64,000 nucleotides of DNA, from assembly GCF_018739865.1 (NCBI RefSeq), contig NZ_JADOER010000004.1, positions 62,001 to 126,000 of the forward strand. The letters run 5' to 3'. Every line of letters starts with the position of its first letter. Position 1 is the stretch's first letter. The notes beneath the pieces were generated by a model that saw nothing but the letters and a program-made list of their open reading frames with translations, was not told the origin of the DNA and did not search any database. This DNA is from Leptothoe kymatousa TAU-MAC 1615 (GTDB lineage Bacteria; Cyanobacteriota; Cyanobacteriia; Phormidesmidales; Phormidesmidaceae). The position numbers and the translations under genes are program-made. Shown here in pieces: positions 23,590-63,438 of this stretch.

Positions 23590-24762
23590 CTACATAATGC
23601 TTTGTACAAAGTCGCTCAACCGTTCTATGCCGCGCTCTATGGTGTCCATGTCGGTGGCGTAGGACACGCGGATGCCCGTATCGTCACCAAATGCCACCCC
23701 TGGAACGGCTGCTACATATTTTTCATTCAAAAGACGGCTGCAAAAATCAAAGGATTTTAGTTGCGTTTTGCTGATGTCGATAAAGATATAAAAGCTGCCA
23801 TCGGGGACAACGCAGCTCAGACCAGGAATGGCATTGACTAGGTCAACAATGCCGCGACGGCGCTTGGCAAAGGCTTTGAGCATGGTGGCTACGCAGTCCT
23901 GGGGCGATTCTAGGGCAGCGATCGCACCATACTGGGCGAAGGTGCACACATTGGATGTGCTTTGGCTTTGGAGGGTGTTTGCCGCTTTGATCAATTCCAC
24001 CGGACCCGCCAAATACCCTAAGCGCCAGCCGGTCATGGCATAGGCTTTGGCAAAGCCATTACTCACAATCGTGCGCTCGAATATAGCGTCACTGACGGCA
24101 CCGATACTTAGGTGTTGCGCGCCATCGTACAAAATCTTTTCGTAAATTTCGTCGGCGACGACCCAAATATTATTGGCGACGATTACCTCTGCCAATGCCC
24201 GTACTTCATCCGGTGTGTACACCACCCCCGTCGGATTAGACGGGGAATTAAAAATAAGGAATTTAGTTTTGGGGGTGATTGCTTTTTGTAACTGCTCTGG
24301 TGTGATTTTGTAACCACTTTGGGTGGTGGTTGAAATGACGACCGGCGTTCCTCCAGCTAATTTGACCATTTCTGGGTAGCTGACCCAGTAGGGGGCTGGA
24401 ATGATCACTTCATCCCCTGGCTCAATGGTGGTCATCATCAGGGCATACAGGGAATGCTTGCCGCCATTGGTGACGATGATATTTTCTGCGTTGTAGGCCA
24501 GGTGGTTATCGGTTTGCAGTTTGGTTGCGATCGCTGCCCGCAGGCGCGGTTCCCCTGAGGCTGGACCGTAGCGAGTTTTGCCATCATCCAATGCTTTCTT
24601 CACTGCAGCGCGAATATGCTCTGGAGTATCAAAGTCAGGTTCACCAGCACTGAAACTACATACATCCAGTCCCTCAGCTTTCATGGCCTTGGCCTTAGCA
24701 GAGATGGCCAAGGTCATTGAAGGAGTGACTTGCTGCACCCTTGCAGCTAACTTGATACTCAT
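23590..24762 (-). CDS. aspC: Pyridoxal-phosphate aspartate aminotransferase
   Basis: The protein has 390 residues, the normal length for class I aminotransferases of the Ib type. It shows [17 protein letters not shown] at the N-terminus, [25 protein letters not shown] (PLP-contacting Asp and Tyr) and [20 protein letters not shown] with the Schiff-base lysine. It transfers amino groups between aspartate/glutamate and 2-oxo acids in the cytoplasm; cyanobacterial members may also use prephenate. ATG at 24762. The Yfr1-like RNA terminates about 100 bp upstream on the same strand, so the gene needs its own promoter. Confidence 0.88.
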
Positions 24763-24862
24763 TAGAACGCTGTTCGCCTCCGGCTCAAAACCTTATTCTG
24801 ATTAGCTTAAATCGATTTGTAGTGCAGATTGCAAATCTTCATGATTTGCTCGAATCATGACC

Positions 24863-24941
24863 AAAAAAAAACTCCTCTGGCATTGCCAGGGGAGTAAGTG
24901 TTCTTGATCTGTGTGAAGGAAACGGTGTGAGGAGAGAGGTT
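24863..24941 (-). ncRNA. yfr1: Yfr1-like small regulatory RNA
   Basis: Read on the minus strand, the segment holds CTCTCCTCACACCG (24927-24940 region), an unpaired stretch with a second CTTCACAC, and a terminator ACTCCcCTGGC-aat-GCCAGaGGAGT followed by T9 (24863-24871). Yfr1 of cyanobacteria is defined by the unpaired core ACUCCUCACAC before a terminator hairpin; here ten of the eleven core bases match (U instead of the first A). A plausible promoter is TTGCAT (24971-24976), 17 bp, TATGAC (24948-24953), placing the 5' end near 24941. The three porin leaders at 59.8, 61.6 and 63.4 kb carry complementary sites. The 5' end is inferred. Confidence 0.78.
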
Positions 24942-25012
24942 GTCAAGGTCATAGCCTCGGCAAAATCCCAATGCAAGGAGCACAGCTCGTACGGCAAATC
25001 GGCAGTAATTAC

Positions 25013-25213
25013 TGTGATATCGCTTTTCAGGAACTCCAATTTTTGGATGTCATCCAACTATTGGATTGATTTAATAATCTCGTATATACAGCTCTTTTGA
25101 TGTGATTCCATGGCCGTAAACCTGTGATACCAAAGACTTTTGCCGGTGATATGGGTGATACCCCCTAGTGATATAAATGCCAGGGGCCTGTGATATAAAT
25201 CACGGGCCCCTGG
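25013..25213. promoter_or_regulatory. GTGATA cluster and CRP-like palindrome within a hairpin
   Basis: GTGATA(T) occurs six times between 25013 and 25195. The last copy is part of TGTGA-TATAAA-TCACG (25189-25204), one base from the CRP consensus TGTGA-N6-TCACA. The same palindrome extends outward to a stem of about 15 bp, CCAGGGGCC...GGCCCCTGG (25180-25213). It may be an operator, a transcript end for the pentapeptide gene, or both. Confidence 0.5.
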
Positions 25214-25288
25214 ATGGGGCACAGTGGGTCAGCCTGCTGGCGGGCGAGCCAAGATTCGGCTGGCGGGGTCAGGACGCTGGTTAGCGGG

Positions 25289-58365: not shown

Positions 58366-59766
58366 TTAGAACTTGAAAGTAGAACGAACTACACCATAGA
58401 GGCCGTCATTGTCACCACCGTCGGGGTTGCCGTAGATCACAGAAGGAGTCAGAGTCCAGTACTTGTTGATCTTAGCGGACATGTAACCTTCAATTACTTC
58501 GTTATCGTCGAAGTCTTGAGTGTAGTAAATGCCAACACCATCGCCAAGAAGGTTAGGTAGAGCAGCACCAAACTGGTAGCTGTCGTCACCATCTTGGTCA
58601 GCATAGTAACCAGCAAGCTCAAAACCACCGAAGTCTAGGCTTAGCAGACCAGCGATGATTTCATCCTCGTCATTAAGAGCATCAGAGGAACCACCCATGT
58701 AGGTTACAGCTGCGTCGATGATGCCATCGCTTAGGTAGTTCAGCTGGAAGATGTACTCATACTCATCAAAGATACCTTGGGAAGCATCTTGACCAGCACC
58801 AGTTGCATAACCAGCATCAAAAATTAGGTTCTCAGTTAGAGCAACGTTGAAACCAACACCTAGAGAGTTGCCACCGATACCTAGCTGATCGTAGAACTGA
58901 GGACCGCCGTAATCGCCAACGGAAGGACCATCGAAGGGAACGATGGTGCTAGATACAAAGTCGTCGGAAACGATGCTGTTTGCGGCGATGATACCGGAAA
59001 CACGGCTACCAACGGGGAAGCTGTAGTAAACGTCGTCAATAACAACGTTGTTGCCAGTACCACCGTCACGGGCTAGGTTCCCGGGGATGCCAGTAGCACT
59101 GTTGTTGCTGTCGCCAAACTGGAGACGAGTACGCAGACGATCTTCGCCAGTGAAGCTAGTGTCTAGGTTTAGACGAGTACGATACTCAAAAGTAACTTCG
59201 TCAGCGTCGGTATCAGCAATACCGTCAGCATCGGTGTCAACCTGAACGTCGGTATCGAAAGGAATAACCAAGTGAGCGTCTAATTGACCCTTCAGCTTAG
59301 TAGTAGTAGAGAACTGGTTAGCTTCTAATTCAGCTACGTCAGCTTCAAGAGTGTCAACGCGACCACGGATGGTAGCAAGCTCAGCAGCAAATTCTTCTTG
59401 CAGACGCTTGATAGTCTCAAGTTCGCTGTTGCCGTCGGGGCCGATTAGCTGAACAATTACGTCCAAACAAGCGTTCAAACCAGCGGCAAACTCATAACGA
59501 GTCATGGCGCGGTTGCCGCGGTAGGAACGATCGGGGTAACCCTCAAGGCAACCGTACTCTTCAACTAGGCGTTGCAGAGCAGTGTAAGCCCAGTCAGAAG
59601 GAAGCACGTCAGAAAGCTCGGAAACACTAGTAACCTGAGCCAACTGGATAGAGTCAGAGTTGCTTAGAGCGTCAACGCTTACGGTCTCAGCAGCTACAGC
59701 AGAGTTGGAAAGAGCAGCACCCAAAACAAAGGGGCTAGCCATTAAGGCCTTCCAAAGATTAGCCAT
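58366..59766 (-). CDS. SLH-domain outer-membrane porin (copy 1)
   Basis: The protein has 466 residues. A signal peptide ending AVA-AE (residues 1-26), an SLH domain at about 50-110 (LPSDWAYTALQRLVEEYGCL; YRGNRAMTRYEFAAGLNACL), a short coiled coil (ETIKRLQEEFAAELATIRGR) and an OprB-type 16-strand barrel to the C-terminal phenylalanine (VRSTFKF) define the cyanobacterial Som/iron-uptake-porin family. The SLH domain binds peptidoglycan-linked polymer and the barrel spans the outer membrane. The leader has a 12-nt Yfr1-complementary site, GGTGTGAGGAGA (59776-59787 on the plus numbering), overlapping the GGAG ribosome-binding site. Confidence 0.93.
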   Translation of the reverse strand: MANLWKALMASPFVLGAALSNSAVAAETVSVDALSNSDSIQLAQVTSVSELSDVLPSDWAYTALQRLVEEYGCLEGYPDRSYRGNRAMTRYEFAAGLNACLDVIVQLIGPDGNSELETIKRLQEEFAAELATIRGRVDTLEADVAELEANQFSTTTKLKGQLDAHLVIPFDTDVQVDTDADGIADTDADEVTFEYRTRLNLDTSFTGEDRLRTRLQFGDSNNSATGIPGNLARDGGTGNNVVIDDVYYSFPVGSRVSGIIAANSIVSDDFVSSTIVPFDGPSVGDYGGPQFYDQLGIGGNSLGVGFNVALTENLIFDAGYATGAGQDASQGIFDEYEYIFQLNYLSDGIIDAAVTYMGGSSDALNDEDEIIAGLLSLDFGGFELAGYYADQDGDDSYQFGAALPNLLGDGVGIYYTQDFDDNEVIEGYMSAKINKYWTLTPSVIYGNPDGGDNDGLYGVVRSTFKF

Positions 59767-60167
59767 TATTTAATTTCTCCTCACACCTTAGAAAGTAGGC
59801 CGAGATCCAGCCAAACAGCTGAAAAACTCAGACTATTAAACACACGAACGAAGTCAACCAAAGTATTAAAATACATTGAGAGTACTTCTAGGTAGACATG
59901 CTAGCAGATTCTTCAGTGAAGAACCAGTAAATTCAATCACCATAAATGGTCAGAATTAATTAGCGTGCTCAGTCTACTTATACTTTGCATGCTCGTATAT
60001 TCGATTAGAAATTTTCTCTAGGCTGTGACAGTTGATTTGCTGACCCAGTTATCGATGAAAATCCAAAAAATCTTTTGAGCAATGTGTTTGCGATTCTAAA
60101 GCGTGAAAAGAATTGAGCATGGGCTCTGAATTAACTAGAACCCATGCAAAGTCCCTAATAGGGCGTC
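59767..60167. promoter_or_regulatory. Leader and promoter region of porin copy 1
   Basis: These 401 bp carry the porin 1 leader with the Yfr1-complementary site, a terminator-like hairpin for porin copy 2 (60117-60127 and 60137-60147, one mismatch) and a block at 60054-60108 that resembles 61829-61874 in the next intergenic region. No gene is seen. Confidence 0.55.
59776..59787 (-). promoter_or_regulatory. Predicted Yfr1 target site, porin copy 1
   Basis: On the mRNA, GGUGUGAGGAGA is complementary over all 12 bases to UCUCCUCACACC of the Yfr1-like RNA encoded at 24863-24941. It contains the GGAG ribosome-binding site, 10-11 bases before the AUG at 59766, so pairing would hide it. Confidence 0.75.
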
Positions 60168-61565
60168 TTAGAACTTGAATCTGGAACGGATGACACCGTA
60201 GAGGCTATCGTTGTCGCCACCGTCGGGGTTGCCGTAGATCACAGAAGGAGTCAGAGTCCAGTACTTGTTGATCTTAGCGGACATGTAACCCTCAATGGTT
60301 TCGTTGTCAGCGAAGTCTTGAGCGTAGTAGATGCCAACGCCATCACCCAGTAACCCAGGTAAAGCCGCACCAAACTGGTAGCTATCATCACCATCTTGGT
60401 CAGCATAGTAACCACCCAACTCAAAGCCACCGAAGTCTAGGCTTAACAGACCAGCGATGATAGCTTCATCAGCACCAGCGGACTCACCATCCATGTAAGT
60501 GATAGCAGCGTCAATGATGCCATCGCTGAGGTAGTTCAACTGGACGATGTACTCATACTCATCAAAGATGCCAACACTAGCGTCTTGACCAGAACCAGTG
60601 GAATAGCCAGCATCCAAGATCAGGTTCTCAGTTAGGGCAACGTTGAAACCAGCTGCGAAGCCACCGCCACCGATGCCTAGCTGATCGTAGAACTGAGGAC
60701 CGCCGTAATCGCCAACGGAAGGACCATCGAAGGGAACGATGGTGCTAGTTACAAAGTCGTCGGAAACGATGCTGTTTGCGGCGATGATACCGGAAACACG
60801 GCTACCGATGGGGAAGCTGTAGTAAACATCGTCAATGCGAACATCGTTGATACCACCAGCACCAGCTGCAGCGAAGCCACCGGGAACACCGCCAAGGGCA
60901 TTGGTATTGTCACCAAACTGAAGACGAGTACGCAAACGGTCTTCACCGGTGAAGCTAGTGTCTAGGTTTAGACGAGTACGGTACTGGAACGTTACTTCGT
61001 CAGCGTCGGTATCAACAATACCGTCAGCATCGGTGTCAACCTGAACGTCGGTATCGAAAGGAACAACCAAGTGAGCGTCTAGCTGACCCTTTAGCTTAGT
61101 AGTCGTAGAGAACTGGTTAGCTTCTAGTTCAGCTACGTCAGCTTCAAGAGTGTCAACGCGACCACGGATGGTAGCAAGCTCAGCAGCAAATTCTTCTTGC
61201 AGACGCTTGATAGTCTCAAGTTCGCTGCTGCCATCGGGGCCGATTAGCTGAACGATGACGTCCAAACAAGCGTTTAAACCAGCGGCAAACTCATAACGAG
61301 TCATGGCGCGGTTGCCACGGTAGGAACGATCGGGGTAACCCTCAAGGCATCCATACTCTTCAACTAGGCGTTGCAGAGCAGTGTAAGCCCAGTCAGAAGG
61401 AAGCACGTCAGAAAGCTCGGAAACGCTAGTAACCTGAGCCAACTGGATAGAGTCAGAATTGCTTAGAGCGTCAACGCTTACGGTTTCAGCAGCTACAGCA
61501 GAGCTGGAAAGAACAGCACCCAAAACAAATGGGCTAGCCATGAAGGCCTTCCAGAGATTAGCCAT
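60168..61565 (-). CDS. SLH-domain outer-membrane porin (copy 2)
   Basis: The protein has 465 residues with the same architecture as its neighbours: signal peptide, SLH domain, coiled coil and OprB barrel ending VIRSRFKF. Residues 1-160 are almost identical to copy 1, also at DNA level, whereas loops of the barrel differ (for example GGVPGGFAAAGAGGINDVRI around residue 220). This suggests tandem duplication with continuing exchange in the 5' half. The leader has a 10-nt Yfr1-complementary site. ATG at 61565. Confidence 0.93.
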   Translation of the reverse strand: MANLWKAFMASPFVLGAVLSSSAVAAETVSVDALSNSDSIQLAQVTSVSELSDVLPSDWAYTALQRLVEEYGCLEGYPDRSYRGNRAMTRYEFAAGLNACLDVIVQLIGPDGSSELETIKRLQEEFAAELATIRGRVDTLEADVAELEANQFSTTTKLKGQLDAHLVVPFDTDVQVDTDADGIVDTDADEVTFQYRTRLNLDTSFTGEDRLRTRLQFGDNTNALGGVPGGFAAAGAGGINDVRIDDVYYSFPIGSRVSGIIAANSIVSDDFVTSTIVPFDGPSVGDYGGPQFYDQLGIGGGGFAAGFNVALTENLILDAGYSTGSGQDASVGIFDEYEYIVQLNYLSDGIIDAAITYMDGESAGADEAIIAGLLSLDFGGFELGGYYADQDGDDSYQFGAALPGLLGDGVGIYYAQDFADNETIEGYMSAKINKYWTLTPSVIYGNPDGGDNDSLYGVIRSRFKF

Positions 61566-62007
61566 TATTTTTTAGTTCCTCACACCTAATTGACGGGATG
61601 AATAATTATTTCCCTAAGTAAAATAACCATTGCGTAAAATCCCTGAGGCATAAAGTACCAAAGGCTTATACTTAATTTCCGTATGTCTATATACAGAAAA
61701 TTAATCTGAAGTTAAACTGCCCTTAATTTTTGCTGAAAGTTTCTTTGGTTAAGCGTTTTGCTATATGCCTGTCCTCGCTTTGCGTAGAGTCTATGCAATT
61801 TTTAAGTGCATAGACAATTTATTTTCGTGATGAATGAAAATCTTTGAGCGGTGTGTGTGCTTCTAAGGTATGAAGCTCTGCATAGAAGAAAATGGAAATA
61901 TAGTCTCCTATGCAGAGGTTAGTTATTCGTGTGTGTTTTCTACCTAAGGTGTGGCAGAGAAATTAGCGAGGGCTGTTAAGTCCTCGCAGGGTATCTAAGA
62001 AGTGATC
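61566..62007. promoter_or_regulatory. Leader and promoter region of porin copy 2
   Basis: These 442 bp contain the Yfr1-complementary leader of porin 2, a block at 61829-61874 similar to 60054-60108, a hairpin CTCTGCATAG (61876-61885) with its complement (61908-61917), and a GCGAGG/CCTCGC hairpin at about 61967-61989 close to the porin 3 stop. No gene is seen. Confidence 0.55.
61577..61586 (-). promoter_or_regulatory. Predicted Yfr1 target site, porin copy 2
   Basis: The mRNA has AGGUGUGAGGAAC shortly before the AUG at 61565; GGUGUGAGGA is complementary to ten bases of the Yfr1-like core (UCCUCACACC). It covers the purine-rich ribosome-binding region. Confidence 0.7.
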
Positions 62008-63417
62008 TTAGAACTTGAAGGTGGAACGAACTGCACCGTAAAGGCCGTCGTTGTCACCACCAGTGGGGTTACCGTAGATAACAGCGGGAGTTAGAGTCCA
62101 GTACTTGTTGATCTTGGCGGACATGTAACCCTCAATTACTTCGTTTTCGTCGAAGTCTTGAGTGTAGTAAACACCAACACCATTACCTAGCAGGTTGGGT
62201 AGAGCAGCACCAAACTGGTAGCTCTCATCGCCATCCTGGTCAGCGTAGTAACCAGCAAGCTCAAAACCACCGAAGTCTAGGCTTAGTAGACCAGCGATGA
62301 TAGCTTCGTCGTTACCAGCAGTCTCAGAATCCATGTAAGTGACAGCAGCGTCGATGATGCCATCAGTTAGGAAGTTCAACTGAGCAATCCACTCATACTC
62401 GTCGAAGATACCAGTAGTAGAAGACTGAGCATCGGCAGTAGCGTAGCCTAGGTCAAGAATGATGTTCTCAGTTAGAGCAACGTTCAAACCAAGACCCAGA
62501 GAACCACCGCCAACATCTAGTTGGTCATAGAAGAAAGGACCACCAGCGTCAGCAACGGAAGGACCATCGAAAGGCACGATCGTGCTAGTTACGAAATCGT
62601 CGGAGCTAGCGCTGTTAGCAGAGATAAACGCAGAGATGCGGCTACCGATGGGGAAGGAGTAGTAGACGTCATCCAGACCTACGTTGTCCTCAAGGCCGTT
62701 ACGAGGACCACTCTGACTAGCTAGACCACCAGAAACAACGTCAACATTGCCGCCGTTGATGACAGTTCTTGTGGAGCGAGTGCCGCTGCCACCGCGATCG
62801 CTGGCCTGGAGACGGATGCGCAAACGGTCTTCACCAGTGAAACTGGTATCGAAGTTCAAACGAGTACGATACTCAAAAGTAACTTCGTCGCCATCACCTT
62901 CTACATCGAAAGGAACAACCAAGTGGGAGTCTAGCTGACCCTTTAGCTTAGTAGTAGTAGAGAACTGGTTAGCTTCTAGTTCAGCTACATCAGCTTCAAG
63001 AGTGTCAACGCGACCACGGATGGTAGCAAGCTCAGCAGCAAATTCTTCTTGCAGACGCTTGATAGTCTCAAGTTCGCTGCCGCCGTCGGGGCCGATTAGC
63101 TGAACGATTACGTCCAAACAAGCGTTCAAACCAGCGGCAAACTCATAACGAGTCATGGCGCGGTTGCCACGGTAGGAACGATCGGGGTAACCCTCAAGGC
63201 AACCGTACTCTTCTACTAGGCGTTGCAGAGCAGTGTAAGCCCAGTCAGAAGGAAGCACGTCAGAAAGCTCGGAAACGCTAGTAACCTGAGCCAACTGGAT
63301 AGAGTCAGAGTTGCTTAGCTCATCAACGCTTACGGTTTCAGCAGCTACAGCAGAGCTGGAAAGAGCAGCACCCAAAACAAATGGGCTAGCCATGAAGGCC
63401 TTCCAGAAATTAGCCAT
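62008..63417 (-). CDS. SLH-domain outer-membrane porin (copy 3)
   Basis: The start is ATG 63417 (469 residues), which aligns with the other two copies (MANFWKAFMASPFVLGAALS); the frame extends six codons to a GTG within the Yfr1-complementary leader. The SLH domain and coiled coil are nearly identical to copies 1 and 2. The barrel is the most divergent of the three, with a distinct loop (RGGSGTRSTRTVINGGNVD). It ends AVRSTFKF. The family passes small solutes and inorganic ions, including iron, across the outer membrane. Confidence 0.93.
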   Translation of the reverse strand: MANFWKAFMASPFVLGAALSSSAVAAETVSVDELSNSDSIQLAQVTSVSELSDVLPSDWAYTALQRLVEEYGCLEGYPDRSYRGNRAMTRYEFAAGLNACLDVIVQLIGPDGGSELETIKRLQEEFAAELATIRGRVDTLEADVAELEANQFSTTTKLKGQLDSHLVVPFDVEGDGDEVTFEYRTRLNFDTSFTGEDRLRIRLQASDRGGSGTRSTRTVINGGNVDVVSGGLASQSGPRNGLEDNVGLDDVYYSFPIGSRISAFISANSASSDDFVTSTIVPFDGPSVADAGGPFFYDQLDVGGGSLGLGLNVALTENIILDLGYATADAQSSTTGIFDEYEWIAQLNFLTDGIIDAAVTYMDSETAGNDEAIIAGLLSLDFGGFELAGYYADQDGDESYQFGAALPNLLGNGVGVYYTQDFDENEVIEGYMSAKINKYWTLTPAVIYGNPTGGDNDGLYGAVRSTFKF

Positions 63418-63428
63418 TATTTTTCTAT

Positions 63429-63438
63429 TCCTCACACC
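63429..63438 (-). promoter_or_regulatory. Predicted Yfr1 target site, porin copy 3
   Basis: GGUGUGAGGA in the mRNA leader is complementary to ten bases of the Yfr1-like core and lies at the same distance from the AUG (63417) as in the other two porin genes. Confidence 0.7.

What the first reader, a model, noticed from the sequence alone, without database searches (positions are those of the whole stretch)
24863..24941. Yfr1-like sRNA with perfect complementarity to the leaders of three porin genes in the same window
The minus-strand RNA contains UCUCCUCACACC. All three porin leaders contain its reverse complement over the ribosome-binding site (12 nt in copy 1; 10 nt in copies 2 and 3), at the same distance from AUG. 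Yfr1 is known to repress som porin mRNAs in Prochlorococcus. Here the whole tandem family carries the site, and the graded match suggests copy 1 is controlled most strongly. The first core base differs from the usual Yfr1 core (U for A), and copy 1 has the matching A, suggesting co-variation.
Basis: partly seen in the sequence, partly recalled or inferred. Interest (0 to 1): 0.78.

Follow-up and report, generated by a model that had tools for sequence, protein, structure and literature searches.

The report
Yfr1-site porins; look-alike RNA, not Yfr1

Summary
The base matches are real: minus strand 24924-24935 reads UCUCCUCACACC, and the three tandem porin leaders hold its complement (12, 10, 10 nt), 11 nt before AUG. 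The site looks selected: GGTGTGAGGA is kept in 8 of 9 compared porin leaders of the genus (the ninth has one change) while the flanks diverge. But the RNA is not Yfr1. The genome's Yfr1 lies on another contig between a guaB-family gene and a thioredoxin gene, with canonical ACUCCUCACACC (Rfam RF01116, 50 bits), and matches the same sites by 11/10/10 nt. The window RNA scores 5.9 bits against a Yfr1 model (Yfr1 89.6). It is a different, genus-restricted candidate RNA, in 8 of 8 genomes, with a covarying terminator. Its Yfr1-like stretch is less conserved (8 of 12 columns) than a neighbouring 25-nt block (24 of 25), and the porin match is lost in one relative and weakened in another. The proposed co-variation fails. 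Most likely Yfr1 controls the porins, as known in Prochlorococcus; the window RNA may add to this in some species, but its main role is probably another one.

The parts
   Evidence: found in 8 of 8 genomes of the genus and in 0 of 51 other relatives by DNA; terminator with compensatory changes
24924..24935 (-). Yfr1-like stretch UCUCCUCACACC (one base off the Yfr1 undecamer); 8 of 12 columns invariant in 8 genomes
24899..24923 (-). near-invariant block GUUUCCUUCACACAGAUCAAGAACA, 24 of 25 columns invariant in 8 genomes; best kept of the five parts compared; function unknown
   Evidence: no excess of complementary leaders
24863..24895 (-). intrinsic terminator: hairpin and run of U; 6 of 11 consensus pairs have changes on both sides that keep the pair
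24944..24959 (-). small hairpin upstream of the Yfr1-like stretch; no compensatory changes among relatives
24970..25046 (-). conserved upstream stretch (promoter/regulatory region, or 5' part of a longer RNA)
23590..24762 (-). class I/II aminotransferase gene, directly downstream of the candidate RNA in all 8 genomes
59776..59787 (-). Yfr1-type site in the leader of porin copy 1 (12 nt to the window RNA, 11 nt to Yfr1)
61577..61586 (-). Yfr1-type site in the leader of porin copy 2 (10 nt to either RNA)
63429..63438 (-). Yfr1-type site in the leader of porin copy 3 (10 nt to either RNA)
58366..59766 (-). porin copy 1 (SLH + OprB)
60168..61565 (-). porin copy 2 (SLH + OprB)
62008..63417 (-). porin copy 3 (SLH + OprB); start taken at the ATG 63417, not the GTG 63435 of the mechanical ORF list

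Best explanation
The three porin mRNAs are targets of the canonical Yfr1 encoded elsewhere in this genome (G000:C18:82419-82490, between a guaB-family gene and a thioredoxin gene). Its unpaired ACUCCUCACACC pairs with GGUGUGAGGA(G) over the ribosome-binding site and blocks translation. The window RNA is a different, genus-specific candidate small RNA, ended by its own terminator, that carries a near-copy of the Yfr1 motif. It can pair with the same porin sites in this and some related species and may back up Yfr1 there, but it is maintained mainly for something else, centred on its near-invariant 25-nt block. Shown: the sequences, their conservation, the covarying terminator, the presence of a true Yfr1 locus. 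Inferred: transcription of either RNA, pairing in the cell, translational repression, and redundancy.
For: Canonical Yfr1 found by motif, synteny, Rfam RF01116 (50 bits, gathering score 38) and own model (89.6 bits; this sequence is in the model) (neighbours are GuaB3-family and thioredoxin). The window RNA gets 5.9 bits in an unfiltered search of 801 bases and no RF01116 match even at E up to 10. GGTGTGAGGA is identical in 8 of 9 compared porin leaders and has one change in the ninth, while 38 of the 40 upstream columns have their commonest base at only 33-78% in an ungapped alignment. Yfr1 matches by 10-11 nt in all 7 leaders of the four genomes where both it and close porins were found; the window RNA by 12/10/10 (G000), 12 (G004 and G005, one leader each), 8 (G007, both leaders; 10 with G-U) and 6 (G006, both). 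The window RNA is present in 8 of 8 genus genomes; 6 terminator pairs are changed on both sides (0 of 500 shuffles reach this). The gap between its U-run and the conserved region before the aminotransferase gene varies, with about 130 extra nt in G004 and G005, which favours a separate transcription unit.
Against: No transcript data for either RNA. For Yfr1 itself, 4 of 60 shuffles reached the same number of leaders with 10 nt. Yfr1 was not found in G006, where the window RNA has also lost the porin match, so redundancy cannot be tested there. The window RNA has the longest match to copy 1, and in G004 and G005 a 13-pair match with one G-U, which would fit a real porin role in part of the genus. 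In folded leader stretches of about 164 nt the site is mostly paired in copies 2 and 3 (mean unpaired 0.43, 0.10, 0.07 for copies 1-3), which would hinder either RNA. No promoter was found by the consensus scan. RNAduplex energies do not separate the two RNAs consistently. One measure of the pair count, further pair types, is not above shuffles (260 of 500).
Confidence: 0.68

Rival explanations
1. The window RNA is a second Yfr1-motif small RNA of the Yfr10/Syr5 sort, and porin repression is its main job, with Yfr1 sharing the sites.
For: 12-nt match to copy 1, 10 nt to the others, above chance; CUCCU invariant and CUCCUCACAC intact in 5 of 8 genomes; longest match in G004/G005; such extra Yfr1-motif RNAs are described elsewhere (PMC6778093, section on conservation).
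Against: Porin match lost in G006 and only 8 nt (10 with G-U) in G007; the stretch is also damaged in G001 (CUCCUCAUAC), where no close porin was found. The neighbouring block is far better kept. The motif is 10 of 11, whereas the described RNAs share the motif.
Confidence: 0.17
2. The element is a cis-acting leader or attenuator of the aminotransferase gene, not a trans-acting RNA: the conserved GUUCCUGA upstream pairs with UCAAGAAC next to the terminator and switches read-through.
For: The same gene follows on the same strand in all 8 genomes; terminator conserved; the long-range helix is possible in all 8.
Against: The helix bases never vary, so nothing tests it; the gap to the gene varies and takes about 130 extra nt in two genomes and about 25 in a third, while the roughly 100 nt before the gene are conserved as a unit of their own; no Rfam match above the gathering score at this locus.
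Confidence: 0.12
3. The similarity to Yfr1 is chance in an unrelated or silent locus: a pyrimidine-rich anti-Shine-Dalgarno stretch that matches purine-rich leaders.
For: Part of the match is the generic AGGAG complement; with 2 mismatches the motif is no commoner than chance in the window (6 seen, 3.87 expected).
Against: 10-12 nt matches exceed the generic part; none in about 4,000 random stretches; the locus and its terminator are conserved.
Confidence: 0.1

Closest known systems
Yfr1 (Rfam RF01116)
   Same: Pyrimidine-rich unpaired stretch complementary to ribosome-binding regions; 3' terminator hairpin; porin mRNAs as (here possible) targets
   Different: Window RNA has U for A at the first motif base, no strong 5' GCGGAGAC hairpin, about 48 unpaired nt instead of 16-20, another locus, and no Rfam match; true Yfr1 is present elsewhere in the genome
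Yfr10 and other extra Yfr1-motif sRNAs (Syr5, Yfr104, Nostoc TSS RNAs; named in PMC6778093)
   Same: A second RNA in the same genome with a Yfr1-like motif and different structure and location
   Different: Those share the Yfr1 motif; here it is 10 of 11 and drifts among relatives. I could not compare the sequences themselves
Yfr2 (taken, from recall, to be Rfam Cyano-1, RF01701)
   Same: Shares the pairing language: the genome's Cyano-1 candidate holds GTGTGAGGAG, complementary to CUCCUCACAC of both RNAs
   Different: Opposite sense: Yfr2 sequesters Yfr1 (PMC6778093)

Membership tests
Yfr1 (RF01116) | Score above the Rfam gathering cut-off (38 bits) | tested here: not met
   No match in the window, nor at E up to 10 in 24700-25150; the C18 locus reaches 50 bits
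Yfr1 (RF01116) | Perfectly conserved ACUCCUCACAC (PMC2190773) | tested here: not met
   UCUCCUCACAC here; CUCCUCACAC intact in 5 of 8 genomes; all 20 canonical Yfr1 sequences that I aligned have the undecamer, but they were selected by it
Yfr1 (RF01116) | Two stem-loops separated by 16-20 unpaired nt, 54-69 nt long (PMC2190773) | tested here: not met
   About 48 nt between the weak 5' hairpin and the terminator in the centroid fold; own Yfr1 model gives 5.9 bits
Yfr1 (RF01116) | Location by guaB and/or trxA (most genomes, PMC2190773) | tested here: not met
   Window RNA lies before an aminotransferase gene; the C18 Yfr1 lies between a GuaB3-family and a thioredoxin gene
Yfr1 (RF01116) | Abundant constitutive transcript | not testable with these tools
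   No expression data
Yfr10-like (second Yfr1-motif sRNA) | Carries the Yfr1 motif outside the Yfr1 locus | tested here: inconclusive
   10 of 11 bases in this genome; broken in G001 and G006
Yfr10-like (second Yfr1-motif sRNA) | Is transcribed and binds Yfr1-type targets | not testable with these tools
   Terminator supported; no transcript or binding data

The most novel reading that the evidence does not exclude
A genus-specific small RNA with two tandem anti-Shine-Dalgarno-like elements (UCUCCUCACACC and UUUCCUUCACACAG): the first echoes Yfr1 and adds a second layer of porin control in some species; the second, near-invariant element binds another, still unknown partner, so the RNA links the Yfr1/Yfr2 envelope circuit to a second regulon or to the adjacent aminotransferase.
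Probability: 0.2. Interest if true: 0.55.

Novelty: new member of a known kind. Interest (0 to 1): 0.33.

Why it matters
Yfr1 control of porins is already known in Prochlorococcus; this extends the likely site to a tandem porin family of another marine lineage and shows it kept while the rest of the leader diverges. The candidate RNA is a compact case for asking whether a second, Yfr1-like regulator shares targets with Yfr1. It is also one more case in which a Yfr1-like motif alone does not identify Yfr1.

Tried and rejected
Rejected: the window RNA as Yfr1. Rejected: co-variation of sRNA base 1 with the porin site. Rejected: a small coding ORF over the RNA; the relatives differ by indels of 1-3 nt within it. 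Tried: gene leaders complementary to the 25-nt block; none with 10 nt among 315 ORFs, and the genus-wide pattern TGTGAAGGAA...ATG gave 17 matches, three of them the RNA's own locus read on the other strand, none before an ORF of 45 aa or more. Tried: distant relatives of the RNA; 14 of 55 other family genomes gave weak matches, 16 places, at most 29.6 bits. Letters were printed for 15 of the 16 (the sixteenth, L116, appeared): one (L118) resembled the block, four (L116, L121, L123, L125) carried another shared element, the rest were not analysed further. Tried: long-range helix over 210 columns; its bases never vary, so it is untested. Tried: literature search for four strings of 14-17 letters from the two conserved elements, no paper, which says little. 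Porin comparison: 9 of the 19 porin-like places were used; the 10 more distant ones were left out of the count. Of those ten, seven were printed (L095 lacks the site, L099 has GGTGTGGGGA, the other five show no GGTGTGAGGA in the stretch printed) and three gave no ORF there. The nine leaders come from five of eight genomes and include orthologues, so they are not independent.

Full report
Observation. The minus strand at 24935-24924 reads TCTCCTCACACC. The three tandem porins (SLH + OprB) carry its complement in their leaders: 12 nt in copy 1 (59776-59787) and 10 nt in copies 2 and 3, each 11 nt before the ATG. The match is above chance, but the three leaders are paralogues.

The porin sites. 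Nine close porin homologues in five of eight genomes of the genus were compared (9 of the 19 porin-like places; the more distant ten were left out). GGTGTGAGGA is identical in 8 of 9 and has one change in the ninth, while of the 40 columns upstream 38 have their commonest base at 33-78% and two at 89% (ungapped, so indels upstream would lower these figures). The two bases beyond the site vary. In 464 kb of this genome (315 ORFs of 120 aa or more), only the three porin leaders hold 10 nt or more of complement to Yfr1 or to the window's Yfr1-like stretch. For Yfr1 this count was reached by 4 of 60 shuffles, for the window stretch by 0 of 60. In folded leader stretches the site is partly open in copy 1 (mean unpaired 0.43) and mostly paired in copies 2 and 3 (0.10, 0.07).

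The window RNA is not Yfr1. A plain motif search (M at the first base) found ACTCCTCACACC once in this genome, at C18:82443, between a gene of the GuaB3 family (TIGR01304) and a thioredoxin gene (TIGR01068). It matches Rfam Yfr1 (RF01116) with 50 bits against a gathering score of 38. The window has no such match, and none at E up to 10 around the locus. A model built from 20 Yfr1 sequences (6 of the 7 of the genus, 14 of the 17 recognised among 29 class loci; near-duplicates left out) gives 89.6 bits for the C18 locus, 89-92 bits in 7 of 8 genus genomes, nothing convincing in G006 (best 13.2 bits), and 5.9 bits for the window RNA. The C18 sequence is itself in the model; the Rfam result does not depend on that.

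What the window RNA is. Its DNA has matches in 7 of 7 other genomes of the genus and in 0 of 51 other relatives. Its own model finds it in 8 of 8 genus genomes with 105-122 bits (these sequences built the model); the best of 55 other family genomes has 29.6 bits. The 25-base block (one base left open) was found exactly in 7 records of the collection of 84,980 species genomes, named Leptolyngbya sp. PCC 7375, Leptolyngbya sp. Heron Island J, Adonisia turfae, Leptolyngbya cf. ectocarpi and three MAGs; the genus is probably Leptothoe (inference; of PMC8225149 I saw only outline and abstract). The terminator hairpin has 6 of 11 pairs with changes on both sides; 0 of 500 shuffles reach six in the whole structure, though the number of pair types is not above shuffles (260 of 500), and no other helix shows such changes. 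With the U-run on the minus strand this supports an RNA that ends near 24863; the model also gives a weak match (28.8 bits) on the other strand over the same hairpin. The 5' end is unknown; the consensus scan found no promoter.

Where conservation lies. The Yfr1-like stretch has 8 of 12 invariant columns, the neighbouring GUUUCCUUCACACAGAUCAAGAACA 24 of 25. CUCCUCACAC is intact in 5 of 8 genomes; G007 has CUCCUCACAU, G001 CUCCUCAUAC, G006 CUCCUACAUG. The longest match to the genome's own porin leaders is 12/10/10 in G000, 12 in G004 and G005 (13 with one G-U), 8 in G007 (10 with G-U) and 6 in G006; Yfr1 gives 10-11 in all seven leaders of the four genomes where both were found. The first base, U, is invariant in 8 of 8, while the porin base opposite varies, so there is no co-variation. 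No leader with 10 nt of complement to the 25-nt block was found in the 315-ORF sample.

Setting. A class I/II aminotransferase gene follows on the same strand in all 8 genomes. The roughly 100 nt before that gene are conserved, but the gap between them and the U-run varies and holds about 130 extra nt in G004 and G005 and about 25 in G003. I read this as two units, a small RNA and a separately started gene; a cis-acting leader is not excluded, and an invariant helix next to the terminator is possible.

Known ground. Yfr1 targets two porin mRNAs in Prochlorococcus, and represses one of them, PMM1121, in an E. coli reporter; extra RNAs with the Yfr1 motif exist, and Yfr2 sequesters Yfr1 (PMC6778093: abstract and sections 3, 6, 7, 9). 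In Nostoc, alr0834, a homologue of those porins, and OprB-like porins are among the predicted Yfr1 targets, with 11 targets of the list tested (PMC6974561: abstract, introduction, first results section, part 1 of the discussion); whether alr0834 was one of the 11 I did not see in the text read. Definition and synteny of Yfr1 are from PMC2190773 (parts 1 and 2 of 4). The original porin paper was not seen, and I did not compare the window porins with the Prochlorococcus or Nostoc ones. The genome has a Cyano-1 candidate (Yfr2 by recall) at C4:193856-193923, 40.5 bits, just under the cut-off of 41, holding GTGTGAGGAG.

Verdict. Observation confirmed; identity as Yfr1 wrong; porin control by Yfr1 likely and of a known kind; the window RNA is a new, genus-level candidate small RNA with a Yfr1-like stretch whose own role is open.

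Noticed in passing
window 25024-25037 (+): TTTTCAGGAACTCC, invariant in the 8 genomes upstream of the candidate RNA on the other strand, also occurs in other family genomes (loci L116, L121, L123, L125) as AGTGACGATTTTCAGGAACTCC directly before a GC-rich terminator; possibly a separate small RNA on the + strand.
   Followed up: partly
L118 (G061:C232:13610-13703, minus): TTTTCCTTCAAACAGTTTCCTTCAAACAGACAAGGAAC plus terminator, shortly after the end of a porin-like ORF; a doubled version of the conserved block in another genus, a single case that may be chance.
   Followed up: partly
window 24810-24849: Alternating inverted repeats (GCAAATC..GATTTGC..CAAATC) before the aminotransferase gene, largely conserved in the 8 genomes; operator or alternative hairpins.
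   Followed up: no
window 25100-25215: Several GTGATA/TATCAC repeats in the spacer upstream of the candidate RNA; similar ATCAC repeats in the relatives aligned.
   Followed up: no
L183:15485-17533 (+), L051, L046: Other leaders with Yfr1-type sites: an AMIN/secretin gene (9 nt to Yfr1) and two secreted-looking ORFs with GGTGTGAGGA before ATG in G007 and G006, in line with Yfr1's reported envelope targets.
   Followed up: partly
L028 (G000:C4:193856-193923, minus): Cyano-1 candidate with GTGTGTGAGGAGCG, half a bit under the Rfam cut-off.
   Followed up: partly
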